From Noviherbaspirillum massiliense JC206 (lineage in GTDB: Bacteria; Pseudomonadota; Gammaproteobacteria; Burkholderiales; Burkholderiaceae_D), in NCBI RefSeq assembly GCF_000312045.1, contig NZ_HE978635.1:374674-438673 (forward strand): 64,000 nt of DNA, written 5' to 3'. The position numbers were made by a program, and so were the translations under genes. Positions 48,245 to 63,213 of this stretch are shown here, one piece after another. The first letter of the stretch is position 1. Each line of letters opens with the position of its first letter. The notes under the pieces were generated by a model, which had not been told where the DNA came from, did no database searches, and saw only the letters and a list, made by a program, of their open reading frames with translations.

Positions 48245-48556
48245 GTGACAGTTCCGCCGGGAAGGAAAAACCGTGCCAGCGGCAATGCTTTATCTCCGAA
48301 ACGGCAACAATTGCCTTTCGACACGTTTCTGCCATCCGTTTGCTTCCCCTCATCCTCGGCAAAGTTTGATAATTATCTAGCCAGGCTGCCCGATTCGGCG
48401 AATCATTGACGACTATACTGAGTTTGCATTTGTCGCGGTCGGTCGAGCGAGATGGCCAGGTATTTTCCGGAGATAAAGCAGTTCTTGGCCCGGAAGCCGG
48501 CATCGTGAATGAAGGAAAGTCCCGGCCTGCGCATGCTGTCCCGAGGAGCGGGTGAA

Positions 48557-49309
48557 ATGACGGCAATTGTTCGAATCGACGATGAAGTCATCGGCACCGA
48601 AGATTTCGTCCGGCTGCTGAAATTGTCAGGCCAGTTCGACAGCCTGATCGAGCAACTCGTCCGGGACAAGCTGACGGTGCGTGTGGCCAAGAAGCAGGGG
48701 ATCAGTGTTTCGCCGCAGGAAATACAGGACCGTGCCGACCAGTTCCGCAGGGTGCAGGGACTGCATCGGGCGGCCGACATGAACCAGTACCTCGATGCGC
48801 TCGGTGTCAGCCTCGATGAATTCGAGGCATTCATCACCGACAACCTGTACCAGGAAAAAATGATGGCGCAGGTCTGCAGCGACCAGGCCGTGGAAGACTA
48901 CTTCAAGCTGCATTCCCCCAGGTTCGACAGCATCGAGGTGAGCCATATCGTCCTCGATGCCGAAAACAAGGCGAAGGAAATGATCGCCGTGCTGCAGGAT
49001 GACCCTGACAGCTTTGCCGAGATGGCCCGGGAACATTCCATGGCCGATACCCGCGAACAGGGAGGCGTCATCGGCAAGGTGTTGCGCGGCTCCCTCAAGC
49101 CCGATATCGAAGCCAGGATCTTCAACGCCGAGCCCGGCGACCTGCTCGGCCCGTTTCCTTCTCCCGACCGGTCTTTCTATGAAATCTTTGCGGTGAATGG
49201 CAAACATCCGGCCAGTCTGGATGAGGAAACCGCTACCGAAGTGCGGCGCCTGCTGCGCGAGGATTGGCTGATGGCGCGGGCGCAGGAACACATCATCGAG
49301 GCGAAGTAG
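48557..49309 (+). CDS. PpiC-type (parvulin) peptidyl-prolyl isomerase, no signal peptide
   Basis: From ATG 48557 (GAGGAG upstream) the product is 250 residues. Residues about 10-120 are a helical SurA/PpiC-like N-domain (LIEQLVRDKLTVRVAKKQGI), and about 128-225 a parvulin domain with VSHIVLDAENKAKEMI, SFAEMAREHS, QGGVIGKV and PGDLLGPFPS. Parvulins of this layout usually carry signal peptides; this one does not. A TATACT at 48414-48419 may be the promoter -10. It lies 219 bases before a C39 peptide exporter, and PpiC-related proteins occur in peptide-maturation clusters, so it may hold or fold the exported peptide before secretion. That role is inferred. Confidence 0.82.
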   Translation: MTAIVRIDDEVIGTEDFVRLLKLSGQFDSLIEQLVRDKLTVRVAKKQGISVSPQEIQDRADQFRRVQGLHRAADMNQYLDALGVSLDEFEAFITDNLYQEKMMAQVCSDQAVEDYFKLHSPRFDSIEVSHIVLDAENKAKEMIAVLQDDPDSFAEMAREHSMADTREQGGVIGKVLRGSLKPDIEARIFNAEPGDLLGPFPSPDRSFYEIFAVNGKHPASLDEETATEVRRLLREDWLMARAQEHIIEAK

Positions 49310-49528: not shown

Positions 49529-52500
49529 ATGGACGCATCACCCAAACCGCAGTCCCTTGCCGATTTCCTGGCGTCCGTGGAAATCCTGTCGCCCTTCACG
49601 CGCGAACAGATCGAGGCGCTGGCCGCGCATGCCCAATCCAAGTCTTATGCATTCGGCGATACGGTGTGCAATGCCGGCGAACCCGCCGGCGGACTGTACG
49701 TCATCAAGTCCGGTTCGGTCCGCATCTTCACCGAAGAGCAGGGCAAGGAAATCAGCATGGGCGTGCGCAAGGCGGGCGAGGTATTCGCCGAGCTCGCCAT
49801 GCTGCGCGAGCACTGGCATGAATCCTCGGTGCGCGCCTCGGTCAAGACCGAGCTGCTGTTCATCGCGCGCGAAGCAATCGCGCCGGTGATCGCCCAGAAC
49901 CGCGCCGCCCTGGATTTCATCACCAGCTATGTCGCAATCAGCTCGGCCGGCGGCTTCGTCACCCGGCTGTTCGACCTGCGCGGCAAGGTGAACAAGGGCG
50001 AGCTGGAGGAAGTCATCCGCAGTGTCGGCGTCAAGCGCGTGCAGGCCGGCAAGGAAATCCTGCAGCAGGATGCGCGCGACGATCGCCGGCTGTATGTGAT
50101 CCGCCAGGGAGAAGTGCGGGTGGTGCGCCGCGAGGATGGTACGGAATATCCGCTGGCGACCTTGCGCCAGGGCGAGATTTTCGGCGAGAAGGCGTGCCTG
50201 ATGCGCCAGGAACAGATGGCGACCGTAATCGCCAGCACCGATACCACGCTGCTGGTCATCCCGGAAAAGACGGTGCACCAGGTCCTAGAGCGCAATCCGA
50301 AGCTGCGCGAAGTGCTGGAAGACCGCATCCGCTTCATCGAGCGGGAATTGCAGCGGCAAAAGAAACTCGCGGAACGGCGCAAGCGGCCGGTCACGCTCGA
50401 CCTGAAGTCCAACCCCGAGTTCGGCGAAAGGCTGATCAAGCGCTTTGCCTGGGTCGAGCAGGCCGAGGAAATGGATTGCGGCGCGGCCTGTCTCGCCATG
50501 CTGTGCCGGCACTACGGCATTTCCATGACCCTCGGCAAGCTGCGCGAACTGGCGAACGTCACCACCCAGGGCGCGACCCTCGACAGCCTCGCGCGCGCCG
50601 GCGAAGCGCTCGGCTTCATCACGCGCGGTGTCCAGTGCACCTATGAAGCATTGCTCGGCTTCGAGCTGCCCTTCATCGTGCACTGGGAGGGCTATCACTA
50701 TGTCGTGGTGTATGGCATTTCGAAGCAGCAGGTGTGGGTGGCGGACCCGGCGGTCGGGTTCAGGAAGATGAGCGTGGAAGAATTCGAGCGCGGCTGGAAC
50801 GGCACCTGCCTCGTGTTCACGCCCGGCCAGAACCTGGTGCAGCTGGCGGCGTCGCGCTCGCCCTGGATCCGCTTCGCGGCTTACCTCAAGCCTTACAAGA
50901 AAATCCTGGCGCACCTGTTCCTCGCCACCTTCGTGATCCAGATGCTCGGCATCGTGCCGCCGCTGATCATCCAGAACATCCTCGACGGCGTCATCGTGCA
51001 CCAGAACGTCGGCCTGCTGCACCTGCTGATCGCCGGCCTCATCATTTCCAACCTGTTCACCCAGCTGATGACGGCAATCCGCGCCTTCCTCGCCAACTTC
51101 ATGGTGCGCAACATGGACTTCGCGATGATGTCGCAGTTCTTCAAGCACACCATGTCCCTGCCGTTTTCCTTCTTCGCCAAGCGCAAGGCGGGCGATGTGC
51201 TGGCCCGCTTCGAGGAAAACCTGACGATCCGCGCCTTCCTCACGGAATCGACCGTCACCACGCTGCTGAACCTGCTGATGGTGTTCATCTATTTCACCAT
51301 CATGTTTCTGTACAACGTGAAGATGACCCTGGTGCTGATCGCCTTCGTGCTGCCGATCCTGGCACTCACCGTGCTCGCGACGCCGCGAGTGAAGAACTAT
51401 GCGCGCGAAACCTTCACGTCCGGCACCGATGCCAAAGCCTTTCTGATGGAAACCCTGGGCGGCGTGGAAACGGTCAAGGGCATGGGCATCGAACGGCCGG
51501 TGCGCCTGAAATGGGAAAAGAAATATGCGAAGGCGCTGGACGTGCAGTACCGGGCGCAAGTCTTCAATATTCTTGTCACCTTCGCCGGCCAGCTGCTCAA
51601 TGCCGCCACCACGGTGGCCATCCTGTGGGTCGGCGCCAGTCTGGTGCTGGCGCATGAATTGACCATCGGCCAGCTGGTCGCCTTCAACGCCCTGATGGGC
51701 AGCGTGCTGGCGCCGCTGATGGGGCTGGTGAGTCTATGGAGCCGCCTGAACGATGCCATCGTCGCCATGGAGCGCCTGGGCGATGTGCTCGAAATGGAGC
51801 CGGAGCAGAAACCGGAAGACTTGCCGTCACGCGTGCTGCTGCCCGACCTGCAGGGCGAGATCCGGCTCGAGAACATCTATTTCCGCTATGGCGGCAATGA
51901 AACGCCGTATGTGCTGGAAAACATCAGCCTCGATATCAAGCCGGGTGAGCTGGTCGCCATCGTCGGCCGCAGCGGTTCCGGCAAGACCACGCTGGCGAAA
52001 ATGCTGGTCGGCTTTTATCCGCCCACCGAGGGCAGGGTGATCGTGGACGGCTATGACATGAGCGTGATCGACAAGGATTACTACCGCGCCCAGGTCGGCT
52101 ATGTCATGCAAAGCAACCTGCTGTTCTCCGGGACGATTGCGGAAAATATCGCCAGCGGCGACGAGAGCCCGGATCGGCGCCGTATCGAGGAAGTGGCGAA
52201 GATGGCGGATGCGCATGCCTTCATCAGCAAGATGCCGCTCGGTTACGAACAGGTGGTGGGGGAGCGCGGCATGGGCTTGTCCGGCGGGCAGATCCAGCGC
52301 CTGTGCATCGCCCGCGCGCTCTACCACGATCCACGCCTGCTGGTGTTCGACGAAGCTACGTCCGCCCTCGATACCCAATCCGAGAGCAACATCATCGGCA
52401 ACATGAGCGAGATCCTGCGCGGGCGCACCGCCGTCATTATCGCGCACCGCCTGTCCACCATCATGCGCGCCGACAAGATCCTCGTGCTGTACGAAGGCGC

Positions 52501-52588
52501 GGTGGTCGAGCAGGGCCGGCACGAGGAACTGGTGGGCAGGCGCGGCATGTATTACCAGCTGGTCCAGAAACAATTGAGCGCAGCATGA
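49529..52588 (+). CDS. C39-peptidase ABC exporter with two N-terminal cyclic-nucleotide-binding domains
   Basis: The 1019-residue protein has, in order, two cNMP-binding domains (about 10-130 and 145-275), a C39 peptidase (about 305-430), a six-helix exporter domain (about 440-730) and an ATPase (about 770-1015). In the peptidase, Gln (WVEQAEE), Cys (MDCGAACLAM), His (EGYHYVVVYG) and Asp (VADPA) are all present, so it should be active and cut after double-glycine leaders during export. The ATPase has GRSGSGKTT, LSGGQIQR and LLVFDEATSALD. Ordinary PCATs lack cNMP domains. No HlyD adaptor is adjacent. The last codons overlap the sigma-54 activator gene. A matching double-glycine peptide lies at 62617-62820. 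Confidence 0.9.
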   Translation: MDASPKPQSLADFLASVEILSPFTREQIEALAAHAQSKSYAFGDTVCNAGEPAGGLYVIKSGSVRIFTEEQGKEISMGVRKAGEVFAELAMLREHWHESSVRASVKTELLFIAREAIAPVIAQNRAALDFITSYVAISSAGGFVTRLFDLRGKVNKGELEEVIRSVGVKRVQAGKEILQQDARDDRRLYVIRQGEVRVVRREDGTEYPLATLRQGEIFGEKACLMRQEQMATVIASTDTTLLVIPEKTVHQVLERNPKLREVLEDRIRFIERELQRQKKLAERRKRPVTLDLKSNPEFGERLIKRFAWVEQAEEMDCGAACLAMLCRHYGISMTLGKLRELANVTTQGATLDSLARAGEALGFITRGVQCTYEALLGFELPFIVHWEGYHYVVVYGISKQQVWVADPAVGFRKMSVEEFERGWNGTCLVFTPGQNLVQLAASRSPWIRFAAYLKPYKKILAHLFLATFVIQMLGIVPPLIIQNILDGVIVHQNVGLLHLLIAGLIISNLFTQLMTAIRAFLANFMVRNMDFAMMSQFFKHTMSLPFSFFAKRKAGDVLARFEENLTIRAFLTESTVTTLLNLLMVFIYFTIMFLYNVKMTLVLIAFVLPILALTVLATPRVKNYARETFTSGTDAKAFLMETLGGVETVKGMGIERPVRLKWEKKYAKALDVQYRAQVFNILVTFAGQLLNAATTVAILWVGASLVLAHELTIGQLVAFNALMGSVLAPLMGLVSLWSRLNDAIVAMERLGDVLEMEPEQKPEDLPSRVLLPDLQGEIRLENIYFRYGGNETPYVLENISLDIKPGELVAIVGRSGSGKTTLAKMLVGFYPPTEGRVIVDGYDMSVIDKDYYRAQVGYVMQSNLLFSGTIAENIASGDESPDRRRIEEVAKMADAHAFISKMPLGYEQVVGERGMGLSGGQIQRLCIARALYHDPRLLVFDEATSALDTQSESNIIGNMSEILRGRTAVIIAHRLSTIMRADKILVLYEGAVVEQGRHEELVGRRGMYYQLVQKQLSAA

Positions 52589-53883
52589 AACTCTACAATC
52601 CCGGCATCAAGAGCGGCTCCGCCATGTCCTATGCGGGCCTGATCGAAAAGATCGAAATCCTGCGCTCGACCCTGCGCTGGGCATCGCGCCTGGAGCGGCC
52701 GGAAATCGAAAAGCTGCTGCGGCAAACCGGCGCGCTGCGCGACGAAGTGATGCAGCTGTCGCACAAGGAGCGCTTCGTGCAGGCGGCGACCGCCGAACCG
52801 ATTGAGATCGAACTATCGGCAAGCGCGCGCCGCCAGGCTCTGCTGGAGCGCAGCTTCGCGTTCGAGGGGACCTTCGGCGACAACCCGAAACTGCTCGATG
52901 CCCTCGAGATCGCGGAAAAGGCCGCACCCACCGACCTGCCGGTCCTGATCGACGGCGAAAGCGGCACCGGCAAGGAACTGATGGCCAAAGTCATCCATGC
53001 CAACGGTGCGCGCGCCGACATGCCCTACATCTCCGTCAACTGTGGCGCGATTCCCGACAGCCTGATTGAATCCGAACTCTTCGGCCACAAGAAGGGCGCT
53101 TTCACCGGCGCGGCCAATGACCGCAAGGGCAAGTTCGAAAGCGCGCACAAGGGCACCATCTTCCTCGACGAGATCGGCGAGTTGCCGCTGACCGGGCAGG
53201 TGAAGCTGCTGCGCGTGCTGCAATCCCATGAAATCCAGCGGGTCGGATCGGATGAGGCCATTTCCGTCGATGCCCGCATCGTTGCCGCCACCAACAAGAA
53301 CTTGCGCCGCCTGAGCGAAGAGGGCAGGTTCCGGGAAGACCTGTTCTACCGGCTCAGCGTCATCCACGTGACGCTGCCGCCGCTGCGCGAGCGCCGCGAC
53401 GAGATTCCACTGCTGGTCCAGTACTTCGGCGACGAAGCGGCCGAGGCGCTCAAGCGCCGCCCGATCAAGATGACGCCGCGGCTGCGTGACTTTCTGTTGA
53501 ATTATGCCTACCCGGGCAACATCCGTGAACTGCGCAACCTCATCTACCGGATCTCCTGCCTCGCCGGGGAAGTGGCGGATCTGGGGCATCTGCCGGAAGA
53601 CATCCGGCCGCGGCCAACTCTCCCTGCGACACCCGATGGCGCGGCAGTCGGAAACGGCATGACGATTCCCGTTTCGCTGAGCGATGCCAAGCGCGCCGCC
53701 AGCGACGAGGCGGAACGCGCCTTCCTCGAGCGCGGCTTGCAGGAAGTCGGCGGCACGGTGGCGGAACTGGCAAGGCGTTGTGACATGAACCGGTCCCACT
53801 TGCAGATGCTGTTGAAGAAGCACGGCATCCATTCCAAGGACTTTCGCAAGCAGGCGGCGACGCAGGGCGGGAAGGGCGGCTGA
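52585..53883 (+). CDS. sigma-54-dependent transcriptional activator without receiver domain
   Basis: The 432-residue protein starts at an ATG overlapping the exporter stop (ATGA). About 90 N-terminal residues are helical and match no known sensor. The AAA+ domain (about 95-335) has Walker A GESGTGKE, GAFTGA (about 171, the sigma-54 contact loop), Walker B GTIFLDEIGELP and the arginine finger region. The C-terminal Fis-type helix-turn-helix reads GTVAELARRCDMNRSHLQ. It activates sigma-54 promoters from upstream sites. Coupling to the exporter suggests it controls export genes, and a sigma-54 promoter with an upstream palindrome precedes the peptide gene at 62820. What signal it senses is unknown. 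Confidence 0.9.
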   Translation: MKLYNPGIKSGSAMSYAGLIEKIEILRSTLRWASRLERPEIEKLLRQTGALRDEVMQLSHKERFVQAATAEPIEIELSASARRQALLERSFAFEGTFGDNPKLLDALEIAEKAAPTDLPVLIDGESGTGKELMAKVIHANGARADMPYISVNCGAIPDSLIESELFGHKKGAFTGAANDRKGKFESAHKGTIFLDEIGELPLTGQVKLLRVLQSHEIQRVGSDEAISVDARIVAATNKNLRRLSEEGRFREDLFYRLSVIHVTLPPLRERRDEIPLLVQYFGDEAAEALKRRPIKMTPRLRDFLLNYAYPGNIRELRNLIYRISCLAGEVADLGHLPEDIRPRPTLPATPDGAAVGNGMTIPVSLSDAKRAASDEAERAFLERGLQEVGGTVAELARRCDMNRSHLQMLLKKHGIHSKDFRKQAATQGGKGG

Positions 53884-61484: not shown

Positions 61485-62243
61485 TCACAGCGCCGGATTC
61501 AGCACCGTCCTCTCGCCATGGTCCGCATCTTCCGCACGCACCACCACCGCTGAAATATTGTCGCGCCCGCCATGCCGGAGCGCCAGGTCGACCAGTGCCG
61601 AGGCGGCCTGATCGCAGTCGCCGGCCGCCAGCACATCGCGCATTTCCTGCTCGCTCACTTCATTGCTCAGGCCGTCGCTGCACAGCAGGAACATGTCGCC
61701 ATCCTTGGCCTGAGTCGTTTCTTCTTCCAGCTCCAGCAGGTCATCGGCGCCGATGGCCCGCGTGATCAGGTTGCGGGCAGGGTGCTGCAGGGCTTCTTCG
61801 GGAGTGATCCTGCCGCTGGCCATCAGTTCTTCGACCTGGCTGTGGTCGCGCGTCAACTGCTTCAGCCGGCCATTGCGCAAGCGATAGATGCGGCTGTCGC
61901 CCACCCACAGGTAGCCGCAATGGTGGCCACATGCAAGCAGCACGACGACGGTGCTGCCGATGATCGGCACGTTCCGGTTGACTGCTTCGGTGCGAAGCTG
62001 ATGGTTTACGGCCTGCAGGCCGTTGCGTGCAGCAGCAAGGAATTCCAGCAGGTCATTCGGGGGAGGAAGCGCGTTCAGGGTATCGACAATCATGCGGCTT
62101 GCGAGATCGCCGGACGCATGCCCGCCCATGCCGTCGGCCACAGCCCATATGCCACGGTCCGGCTGGTCGAGGCACGCATCCTCGTTGCGCTGGCGGACCC
62201 GGCCTGTGTGGGAAAGGGAAGCTGATGTCCAGCGAAATTGCAT
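61485..62243 (-). CDS. PP2C-family serine/threonine phosphatase
   Basis: The 252-residue enzyme has the PP2C metal-site motifs in order: RQRNEDACL, VADGMGGHASGDLAS, GSTVVVLL, WVGDSRIYRL, LLCSDGLSNEVS and GGRDNISAVVV. It removes phosphate from Ser/Thr proteins and normally opposes a Hanks-type kinase, which is not in this window. The ATG at 62243 lacks a clear ribosome binding site but gives the expected N-terminus (SASLSHTGRVRQRNED). It lies downstream of the double-glycine peptide gene in the same direction, about 370 bases away, beyond a terminator. The space 62244-62549 shows nothing else recognisable. Confidence 0.92.
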   Translation of the reverse strand: MQFRWTSASLSHTGRVRQRNEDACLDQPDRGIWAVADGMGGHASGDLASRMIVDTLNALPPPNDLLEFLAAARNGLQAVNHQLRTEAVNRNVPIIGSTVVVLLACGHHCGYLWVGDSRIYRLRNGRLKQLTRDHSQVEELMASGRITPEEALQHPARNLITRAIGADDLLELEEETTQAKDGDMFLLCSDGLSNEVSEQEMRDVLAAGDCDQAASALVDLALRHGGRDNISAVVVRAEDADHGERTVLNPAL

Positions 62244-62549: not shown

Positions 62550-62590
62550 AAAAGCCGCGCCGCAGCGGGGAATGTTTCTCCCGCTGCGGC
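62550..62590 (-). terminator. terminator of the double-glycine peptide gene
   Basis: GCCGCAGCGGG (62559-62569) and CCCGCTGCGGC (62580-62590) form a perfect 11-bp stem with a 10-base loop. On the minus strand it is followed by GCGGCTTTT, a short T tract. It begins 27 bases after the peptide stop. Confidence 0.7.
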
Positions 62591-62616: not shown

Positions 62617-62820
62617 TCAGAACGCCCACATCGGAACCTTGGGGAAGTAGCCGTTGTTGACGGTAACCACGCTGGACAGATCGACCTGGGTCACGGAAGC
62701 GACATTGCCGATGCCGTTCTGGCCGATGACGGACACGTTGGTGCCGCCACGTACGGCGCGCATGGCTTTGCGGTCGAGGTCCTGGCTGAGGGGCAGGTCT
62801 TTGATCATGAGTGCGGACAT
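62617..62820 (-). CDS. double-glycine leader peptide, candidate substrate of the C39 exporter
   Basis: The 67-residue product starts at ATG 62820 with AAGGAG at ideal distance. Leader residues 1-26 read MSALMIKDLPLSQDLDRKAM then RAVRGG; hydrophobic residues at -4 (Val23), -7 (Met20) and -12 (Leu15) are exactly those C39 peptidases recognise. The 41-residue core begins TNVSVIGQNGIGNVASVTQ and contains Q34-x4-N39-x5-Q45, the core spacing of a curlin repeat, and ends YFPKVPMWAF. No cysteine, so no disulfides or lanthionines. A sigma-54 promoter lies 66-81 bases upstream. It could be a microcin, a signal or a small amyloid former; function unknown. Confidence 0.8.
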   Translation of the reverse strand: MSALMIKDLPLSQDLDRKAMRAVRGGTNVSVIGQNGIGNVASVTQVDLSSVVTVNNGYFPKVPMWAF

Positions 62821-62885
62821 GGTGATTCTCCTTGAGTAAGTTGGGTTGAGAGTTGTGAGCATTTGATTGCACACGCCAGACATAC

Positions 62886-62901
62886 AGCAGGGACTGTGCC
62901 A
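62886..62901 (-). promoter_or_regulatory. sigma-54 promoter of the double-glycine peptide gene
   Basis: On the minus strand TGGCACAGTCCCTGCT (62901 to 62886) matches the -24/-12 consensus TGGCAC-N5-TTGCW except for the first T of TTGC, with GG and GC ten bases apart as required. Transcription would start near 62874, about 54 bases before the ATG. Confidence 0.65.
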
Positions 62902-63037
62902 GTCGCGGCCCTGCCTTCGCTGGCATGACCCAAGTCTTTGAATAAAAAGGGAAATAGAAGAACGTCAAGCGCGCGAAGTGGCGTCGTTGCTTGGCGAGGC
63001 GCCATGGAGATGATGGGCGGTGGCCAACAGCTTGCAG

Positions 63038-63058
63038 CGCACTGTCTGGCACAGTGCG
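63038..63058. promoter_or_regulatory. 21-bp palindrome, putative activator binding site
   Basis: CGCACTGT (63038-63045) and ACAGTGCG (63051-63058) are perfect reverse complements around CTGGC. The centre is about 175 bases upstream of the predicted peptide-gene transcription start, a standard place for a sigma-54 activator site. It could instead serve the divergent chrA gene, which starts at 63214. Confidence 0.5.
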
Positions 63059-63213
63059 ACATCTCGGTGCCTGTGGCGCTGCGGGCCACGGTAACGTGCA
63101 TTCATGCTTAAGTGAAGCAGGAAATTTGCTAAATCGTTCCGGATGGAGGTGACTGTCCTCATTCTTTTCATTACCCTTAGTGCGTTCGATAACAATCCCG
63201 CAAGTGATACCTG

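What the first reader, a model, noticed from the sequence alone, without database searches (positions are those of the whole stretch)
62617..63058. Sigma-54-controlled double-glycine peptide gene that matches the C39 exporter and activator at 49.5-53.9 kb
Three signals line up in 440 bases: a strong -24/-12 promoter, a perfect palindrome about 175 bp upstream of the start, and a peptide with a textbook C39 leader. The window also encodes an active-looking C39 exporter overlapping a sigma-54 activator. A trans-acting link would make a complete regulated peptide secretion system: activator, exporter, isomerase, peptide. The distance of 9-14 kb explains why it could be missed by neighbourhood-based mining.
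Basis: partly seen in the sequence, partly recalled or inferred. Interest (0 to 1): 0.88.

Follow-up and report, generated by a model that had tools for sequence, protein, structure and literature searches.

The report
Sigma-54-linked family of double-glycine peptide precursors
The short gene encodes one member of a large, apparently undescribed family of small proteins of betaproteobacteria that look as if they are switched on together by one dedicated activator and cut and exported by one dedicated transporter, perhaps to build the material around the cells.

Summary
A 67-aa precursor (62617-62820, minus) has a 26-aa double-glycine leader and a 41-aa core. The proposed link to the C39 exporter and activator at 49.5-53.9 kb is strongly supported by comparison. 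All three occur together in 16 of 60 relatives (own genome included); one good precursor without the exporter was seen, in an 86%-complete genome. In 399 genomes of the order the same 3 carry precursors and exporter. In 75 of 80 named exporter loci a precursor lies within 10 kb; the activator is next to the exporter in 80 of 80. Promoter and element recur before precursor operons of other genera, and the element led to further precursor genes here. Channel, FHA and HlyD genes lie 13-18 kb past the window end. So this is a multi-precursor secretion regulon (up to 29 leader matches per genome), not a one-peptide system. Closest known: cyanobacterial PteB/EbfG and HlyD/SurA/long-C39 clusters. Matrix or amyloid function is inferred only; no experiment was done.

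The parts
62617..62820 (-). precursor peptide gene (67 aa; GG leader 26 aa, core 41 aa)
   Evidence: translation; near copies at G000:C2:440579-440779 (94%) and 440861-441043 (75%)
62828..62833 (-). ribosome-binding site AAGGAG
   Evidence: direct reading
62886..62901 (-). -24/-12 (sigma-54) promoter TGGCACAGTCCCTGCT
   Evidence: a site scoring at least 9 of 12 precedes 67 of 77 first genes of precursor operons
62931..62941 (-). IHF-like site TCAAAGACTTG, 40 bp upstream of the -24 element
   Evidence: the IHF consensus is recalled, binding not tested
63024..63061 (-). upstream activating element TGTCG-N9-AGACAG-N12-TGTTGG, starting 160 bp upstream of -24
   Evidence: within 2 mismatches in 43 of 66 promoters against 0.3 in shuffles
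62560..62589 (-). 10-bp inverted repeat, possible terminator hairpin
   Evidence: direct reading; the terminator scan listed only a weaker stem at 62566-62554
61485..62243 (-). PP2C-type protein phosphatase, next to the peptide gene
   Evidence: homologue in 71 of 80 named exporter loci
48557..49309 (+). PpiC-type rotamase (listed frame opens at 48509; start set by its LB400 relative)
   Evidence: homologue in 79 of 80 named loci
49529..52588 (+). exporter: two cNMP-binding domains, C39 peptidase, ABC membrane and ATPase domains
52585..53883 (+). sigma-54 activator (AAA+, GAFTGA, weak Fis-type HTH match), start codon overlapping the exporter's stop

Best explanation
The gene is one precursor of a multi-gene secretion regulon. 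The activator encoded behind the exporter binds the three-half-site element about 160 bp upstream of the -24 box. DNA bending at the IHF-like site brings it to sigma-54 polymerase, and precursors are transcribed together from several loci. The C39 domain of the exporter removes the 26-residue leader after GG, and the ABC transporter with its HlyD and outer-membrane channel (encoded 13-18 kb past the window end) sends the 41-residue core outside. Shown here by sequence: precursor family, promoter geometry, conserved catalytic residues, co-occurrence, gene linkage, presence of HlyD and channel genes. Inferred: binding of this activator to this element, cleavage, export. Inferred more weakly: the cores (about 20% N+Q, few charges, many paralogues, a faint curlin-like match) are structural matrix components, as EbfG proteins are proposed to be in Synechococcus, rather than antibacterial peptides.
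For: Exporter orthologue and activator orthologue in the same 16 of 60 genomes (own included), precursors in all 16. In 399 genomes of the order (own included) precursors in 3 and exporter in the same 3. Named loci: precursor (leader E < 1e-3) within 10 kb in 75 of 80; activator starting 0-113 bp behind the exporter in 80 of 80; rotamase 79, PP2C 71, HlyD 66, FHA 66, OMF 65 of 80. Promoter score at least 9 in 67 of 77 operon heads and 123 of 129 heads from other genera against 6.6 in shuffles. Element within 2 mismatches in 43 of 66 (0.3 in shuffles) and 72 of 123 (1.6 in shuffles); it starts 156-162 bp upstream of -24 in 39 of 48 cases with up to 3 mismatches and 157-162 bp in 42 of 72 in other genera. 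Recognition helix nearly invariant in 92 aligned activators. In this genome all 3 exact element matches precede precursor genes. The only one of this genome's 3 C39 domains on an ABC transporter is this exporter.
Against: No experiment. G035 carries a precursor with all three promoter elements and no exporter was found at E up to 1e-20 (86% complete). Of 68 composite IHF-like + -24/-12 matches in 17 genomes, 11 precede other genes. 10 of 77 heads lack a -24/-12 site of score 9. The IHF-like site at 36-44 bp is found in only 35 of 123 promoters of other genera. 5 of 80 exporter loci have no precursor within 10 kb. rpoN was not searched for. One element-linked frame in this genome has no GG. Genomes are related, so the counts are not independent. 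The matrix role rests on composition and analogy: the curlin match is below Pfam's cut-off and seen in 3 of 76 members.
Confidence: 0.87

Rival explanations
1. The secreted cores are class II microcin-like antibacterial peptides, sharing leader and exporter logic with MccV/CvaB.
For: GG leader, C39 exporter, HlyD and OMF genes present; weak Bacteriocin_IIc hits in 3 of 76 members, best E 0.012.
Against: Many tandem paralogues (up to 29 leader matches per genome at E up to 0.1) with few charged residues (median 7.3%). In 45 type A precursors, chosen by the motif NNGNN.AF, further core positions outside that motif are invariant too (Q58, Q62, Q64, P86, Q88, N92), which is unlike diversifying toxins. 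No immunity-like gene recognised beside the window peptide, whose downstream neighbour is a PP2C phosphatase; not searched systematically.
Confidence: 0.2
2. The secreted peptides are signals (pheromones) sensed by the strain itself, with the activator or the kinase, phosphatase and FHA proteins in the response.
For: Activator co-encoded; kinase, PP2C and FHA genes in the locus. HetC, of similar domain order, is proposed to export a signalling peptide (PMC10986499, passages).
Against: Many different cores per genome with low charge fit structure better than signalling; the activator has no recognised sensor domain.
Confidence: 0.15
3. The promoter is sigma-54 dependent but driven by another activator; the activator next to the exporter controls something else.
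For: Binding was not tested; the exporter operon itself has no copy of the element in the window.
Against: Activator orthologue in the same 16 of 60 genomes as the exporter, all with precursors; next to the exporter in 80 of 80 named loci with a near-invariant recognition helix, while the element is conserved across genera.
Confidence: 0.08
4. Chance: a small frame with a leader-like start beside a chance -24/-12 match.
For: A -24/-12 site of score 10 alone is common (10 in the window).
Against: Near copies in the genome, family in many genera, shared three-element geometry.
Confidence: 0.01

Closest known systems
PteB / EbfG1-4 of Synechococcus elongatus (PMC4997328, PMC9981879; passages seen)
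   Same: Several GG-motif small proteins from one operon whose efficient secretion needs the C39 cysteine of a peptidase transporter; EbfG1-3 gave amyloid signals when expressed in an E. coli test system; needed for biofilm
   Different: The passages seen name no sigma-54 activator, upstream element or FHA/kinase/PP2C genes; core homology not tested; function here untested
Cyanobacterial bacteriocin clusters of groups I and II (PMC3140520; passages seen)
   Same: HlyD, SurA-type rotamase protein and a 'long type' C39 ABC transporter, with precursor arrays
   Different: Here betaproteobacterial, with a dedicated sigma-54 activator and OMF, FHA and PP2C genes in the cluster; precursors scattered as a regulon
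HetC of Nostoc PCC 7120 (PMC10986499; passages seen)
   Same: N-terminal cNMP domain + C39 + ABC; there ppGpp binding in vitro and need for the cNMP domain were reported
   Different: HetC's substrate is not identified and no membrane fusion protein gene lies near it, as that paper says; here candidate substrates and HlyD are visible
Class II microcins (CvaB/MccV type; recalled)
   Same: GG leader, C39 ABC exporter, HlyD, outer-membrane channel
   Different: Large gene families, regulation, core composition; no immunity gene recognised
Curli subunits, PF07012
   Same: Faint match of the window core (17.9 bits, cut-off 20.7)
   Different: One weak repeat below the cut-off, GG leader, different exporter
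PpiC-type protein TIGR04500 with a PCAT in a graspetide cluster (PMC13097080; passages seen)
   Same: PpiC-type protein encoded with a PCAT; the window rotamase scores 91 bits
   Different: Curated cut-off is 180 bits; no ATP-grasp ligase among the cluster proteins scanned

Membership tests
C39-processed double-glycine precursor | N-terminal leader ending in GG with conserved hydrophobic positions, followed by a short core | tested here: met
   L9, M20, G25, G26 invariant in 24 diverse leaders
C39-processed double-glycine precursor | cognate exporter with intact C39 Cys/His/Asp and ABC domains | tested here: met
C39-processed double-glycine precursor | cleavage after GG and secretion | not testable with these tools
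   needs mass spectrometry
Sigma-54 / enhancer-binding-protein regulon | -24/-12 promoter at a conserved position | tested here: met
Sigma-54 / enhancer-binding-protein regulon | upstream activator element at a preferred distance | tested here: met
Sigma-54 / enhancer-binding-protein regulon | activator with AAA+ domain and GAFTGA loop | tested here: met
   GAFTGA read in the translation
Sigma-54 / enhancer-binding-protein regulon | rpoN in the genome and dependence on it | not tested
   no search made
Class II microcin | antibacterial activity and immunity gene | not testable with these tools
   activity needs a bench test; no immunity-like gene recognised beside the window peptide, not searched systematically
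Curli subunit (PF07012) | curlin repeats over the family cut-off | tested here: not met
   window peptide 17.9 bits against 20.7; 3 of 76 members match at E up to 0.1
PteB/EbfG biofilm system | GG proteins with a C39 ABC exporter carrying an N-terminal cNMP-type domain | tested here: met
   PteB's domain order taken from a PMC4997328 passage that calls HetC's organisation similar
PteB/EbfG biofilm system | sequence homology of the cores to EbfG | not tested
   EbfG sequences were not fetched
PteB/EbfG biofilm system | role in biofilm matrix | not testable with these tools
   needs mutants
TIGR04500 PpiC-type maturation protein | score over the curated cut-off | tested here: not met
   91 bits against 180

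The most novel reading that the evidence does not exclude
A type 1 secretion system dedicated to a multigene family of amyloid-like matrix proteins, widespread in Betaproteobacteria, controlled at two levels: sigma-54 and a dedicated activator switch all precursor operons on at once, and a phosphorylation switch (Ser/Thr kinase, PP2C phosphatase, FHA protein encoded with the HlyD and channel genes) together with the exporter's nucleotide-binding-type domains gates export, as a kinase/phosphatase/FHA set gates type VI secretion (that comparison recalled).
Probability: 0.35. Interest if true: 0.88.

Novelty: new variant of a known kind. Interest (0 to 1): 0.78.

Why it matters
GG peptides of Gram-negative bacteria are mostly sought as antibiotics next to an exporter. 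Here one exporter, one activator and one DNA element tie together a precursor family with up to 29 leader matches per genome, at loci named Noviherbaspirillum, Paraburkholderia (including strain LB400), Caballeronia, Cupriavidus, Aromatoleum, Massilia and others. None of 76 representative precursors has a convincing match in Pfam, NCBIfam or PHROGs (best E-values 0.0008 to 0.007). The element gives a practical way to find precursors far from the exporter, and makes it testable whether Betaproteobacteria have a counterpart of the cyanobacterial EbfG biofilm system.

Tried and rejected
Considered and rejected: the 88-aa frame from ATG 62883 (starts before the expected transcript); the palindrome as the conserved operator (the larger element is what is conserved); a general link to any C39 exporter (G015, G029, G049, G056 have a distant C39 match and no precursor); the two other C39 domains of this genome as exporters (frames of about 250 aa without ABC domains); curli membership; viral origin (PHROGs: 1 of 76 members, E 0.0072). 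NCBIfam hits were weak and mostly leader-like (GRASP_targ_2 and GG_sam_targ_CFB in 9 of 76 each, CsgB in 2, CsgA in 1). An A5 profile found no solved structure at E up to 1. I first thought a cyclase might feed the exporter's cNMP domains; the candidate is an FHA-GAF-HD protein instead.

Led nowhere: structure prediction (switched off), so no fold search. Literature: the listings showed no paper on this family in Betaproteobacteria; only open-licence PMC papers are held, so absence there is weak. No paper was read whole; passages of five were seen.

Full report
What is there. The window belongs to a 4.19-Mb genome in three contigs (window = G000:C2:374674-438673). Genomes of the same genus coincide with named ones (the G014 contig of 5,132,512 bases is Noviherbaspirillum autotrophicum, the G006 contig of 4,847,656 bases N. 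denitrificans), so I infer Noviherbaspirillum. The gene at 62617-62820 minus encodes MSALMIKDLPLSQDLDRKAMRAVRGG followed by 41 residues, with AAGGAG 7 nt before the ATG. Two near copies (94% and 75% identity) lie about 3 kb further on, with three weaker leader relatives: one beside those copies and two on contig C1. A leader profile gave eight matches in this genome, adding C1:3068993 and C2:677420. The element search added a leader-like frame without GG near C1:813156.

A family, not a single gene. A profile of six own precursors matched 18 of 60 genomes (own included) at E up to 0.1, with up to 29 matches in one genome. One of the 18 (G038, E 0.09) I read as chance. From 60 fetched loci I collected 162 precursors. 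Their cores fall into several types: A (...NNGNN.AF...NPTQ.G.NNI), B (ANVNVGVNQNITQLQNVQVNALNNVGVIG), C (GAPWV.GW...ADQMINQ), D (ARTRGRQ), and single ones such as the window's. Median N+Q content of the cores is 20.6% and median charged residues 7.3%.

Promoter architecture. In the first genes of precursor operons the -24/-12 site scores at least 9 of 12 in 67 of 77; in genes inside operons in 3 of 83. Over all 160 precursors with enough upstream DNA, 70 reach 9 against 6.35 in shuffles. An IHF-like TCAANNNNTTR lies 39-41 bp upstream of the -24 T in 50 of 67 heads. Further up is TGTYG-N9-VRACAS-N12-TGTYGG (gaps allowed to vary by one): within two mismatches in 43 of 66 promoters against 0.3 in dinucleotide shuffles, starting 156-162 bp upstream of -24 in 39 of 48 cases with up to three mismatches. 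The window copy matches without mismatch at 160 bp. In 70 named loci outside the Noviherbaspirillum-like ones, 123 of 129 heads have the -24/-12 site (6.6 expected) and 72 of 123 the element (1.6 expected), but only 35 of 123 the IHF-like site at 36-44 bp.

Specificity. In this genome the looser composite pattern occurs 3 times, each before a precursor (control 1). With tighter spacing, over 17 genomes there are 68 matches against 2 in the reversed control: 53 with a precursor downstream (50, 3), 1 beside a leader match, 2 running into assembly gaps, 1 at a contig end (with the element), and 11 before other genes, none of these with the element by my pattern. The element alone, searched in this genome with up to 2 mismatches, gave 30 matches against 13 in the control, so weak matches are mostly noise. 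All 3 exact ones precede precursors. Of two one-mismatch matches, one precedes the leader-like frame without GG, with a -24/-12-like site 89 bp before it; the other was not examined. Of 25 two-mismatch matches, four are the same sites read on the other strand, one lies upstream of the precursor at C2:677420, and the other 20 were not examined.

Link to exporter and activator. The exporter orthologue (73-100% identity) is in 16 of 60 genomes: 15 of the genus (own included) and G017. The activator orthologue is in the same 16. All 16 have precursors; of the other 44, G035 has one good match and G038 a weak one. The G035 precursor lies beside a kinase gene 57% identical to the one in this locus. 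Of 399 genomes drawn from the order (own included), 3 have precursors at E up to 1e-4 and the same 3 the exporter at E up to 1e-60; the tool scored at most 20 candidates per genome in the rows shown, so misses are possible. Fisher tests give 1e-13 and 1e-7, too optimistic because genomes are related. A scan of one genome for each of 84,980 species found 267 relatives of the exporter, of which the best 80 were kept. 75 of 80 have a precursor within 10 kb; of the five without, two are on contigs under 11 kb. The activator starts 0-113 bp behind the exporter in 80 of 80. Within 10 kb, rotamase is in 79, PP2C 71, HlyD 66, FHA 66, OMF 65, the kinase in only 2 of 80. The activator's recognition helix is nearly invariant among 92 aligned copies, some from the same genomes.

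The whole machine. In Paraburkholderia xenovorans LB400 the order is OMF, FHA protein, HlyD, rotamase, exporter, activator, PP2C. In this genome the set is stretched over about 34 kb: rotamase, exporter and activator at 48.6-53.9 kb of the window; PP2C and the peptide at 61.5-62.8 kb; then, beyond the window, two more copies and a type D precursor, a Ser/Thr kinase (C2:441587), an FHA-GAF-HD protein, OMF (C2:451447), FHA protein (C2:453001) and HlyD (C2:455501). HlyD is 74% identical to the LB400 one, and an orthologue is in 16 of 16 genomes searched. The two other C39 domains of this genome are in frames of about 250 aa without ABC domains.

How it most likely works. See Best explanation. The step that rests least on evidence is the role outside the cell. 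The nearest studied parallel is Synechococcus: efficient secretion of EbfG1-4 and biofilm need the C39 cysteine of PteB, and EbfG1-3 gave amyloid signals in an E. coli test system (passages of PMC4997328 and PMC9981879). HetC, with a cNMP domain as here, binds ppGpp in vitro and needs that domain (passages of PMC10986499). The curlin match of the window core is below Pfam's cut-off and rare in the family, so amyloid is a hypothesis.

Known or new. The building blocks are known: cyanobacterial clusters with HlyD, a SurA-type rotamase protein and a long C39 ABC transporter were described in 2011 (passages of PMC3140520). The searches named in Tried and rejected showed no description of the betaproteobacterial precursor family, its activator or its element. 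I rate it a new variant of a known kind.

Noticed in passing
L002:1324-2088 (G000:C2:845116) and L003:1393-2145 minus (G000:C1:2903607): Two C39-like peptidase genes without ABC domains, the first followed by a gene for a likely outer-membrane beta protein; they resemble FapD of the Pseudomonas Fap amyloid operon (recalled, not tested).
   Followed up: partly
L277:2642-4645 minus and L277:8464-10500 (beyond the window end): A caspase (C14) + FGE-sulfatase protein and an FHA-GAF-HD-HD_5 protein lie between the kinase and the channel gene of the secretion locus; the FHA-GAF-HD protein has a relative in 7 of 80 named loci.
   Followed up: partly
L218:1726-1914 plus (near G000:C1:813156): The upstream element (1 mismatch) and a -24/-12-like site precede a leader-like frame (MQTIIIQDLHRTVINQHELTG...) that has no GG.
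   Followed up: partly
L324:721-942 plus (G000:C2:677420), L119:1927 minus, L100:1372 minus: A precursor subtype with core ending like YYDDG...TSDPS.SNVGYDSPFTPIP, unlike the N/Q-rich types and conserved between genomes.
   Followed up: no
L009 around 1180-1920: Repeated GGTGCGCATGGCGCACCCTAC-like palindromic units around the precursor at C1:802416.
   Followed up: no
L090:4262 plus (G035): Precursor with full promoter architecture beside a kinase gene 57% identical to the one in this locus, in an 86% complete genome where no exporter was found.
   Followed up: partly
L307, L314, L317 (G009, G008, G010): Three non-precursor matches of the composite promoter precede the same gene (MENTPS...), a possible sigma-54 target without the upstream element.
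   Followed up: no
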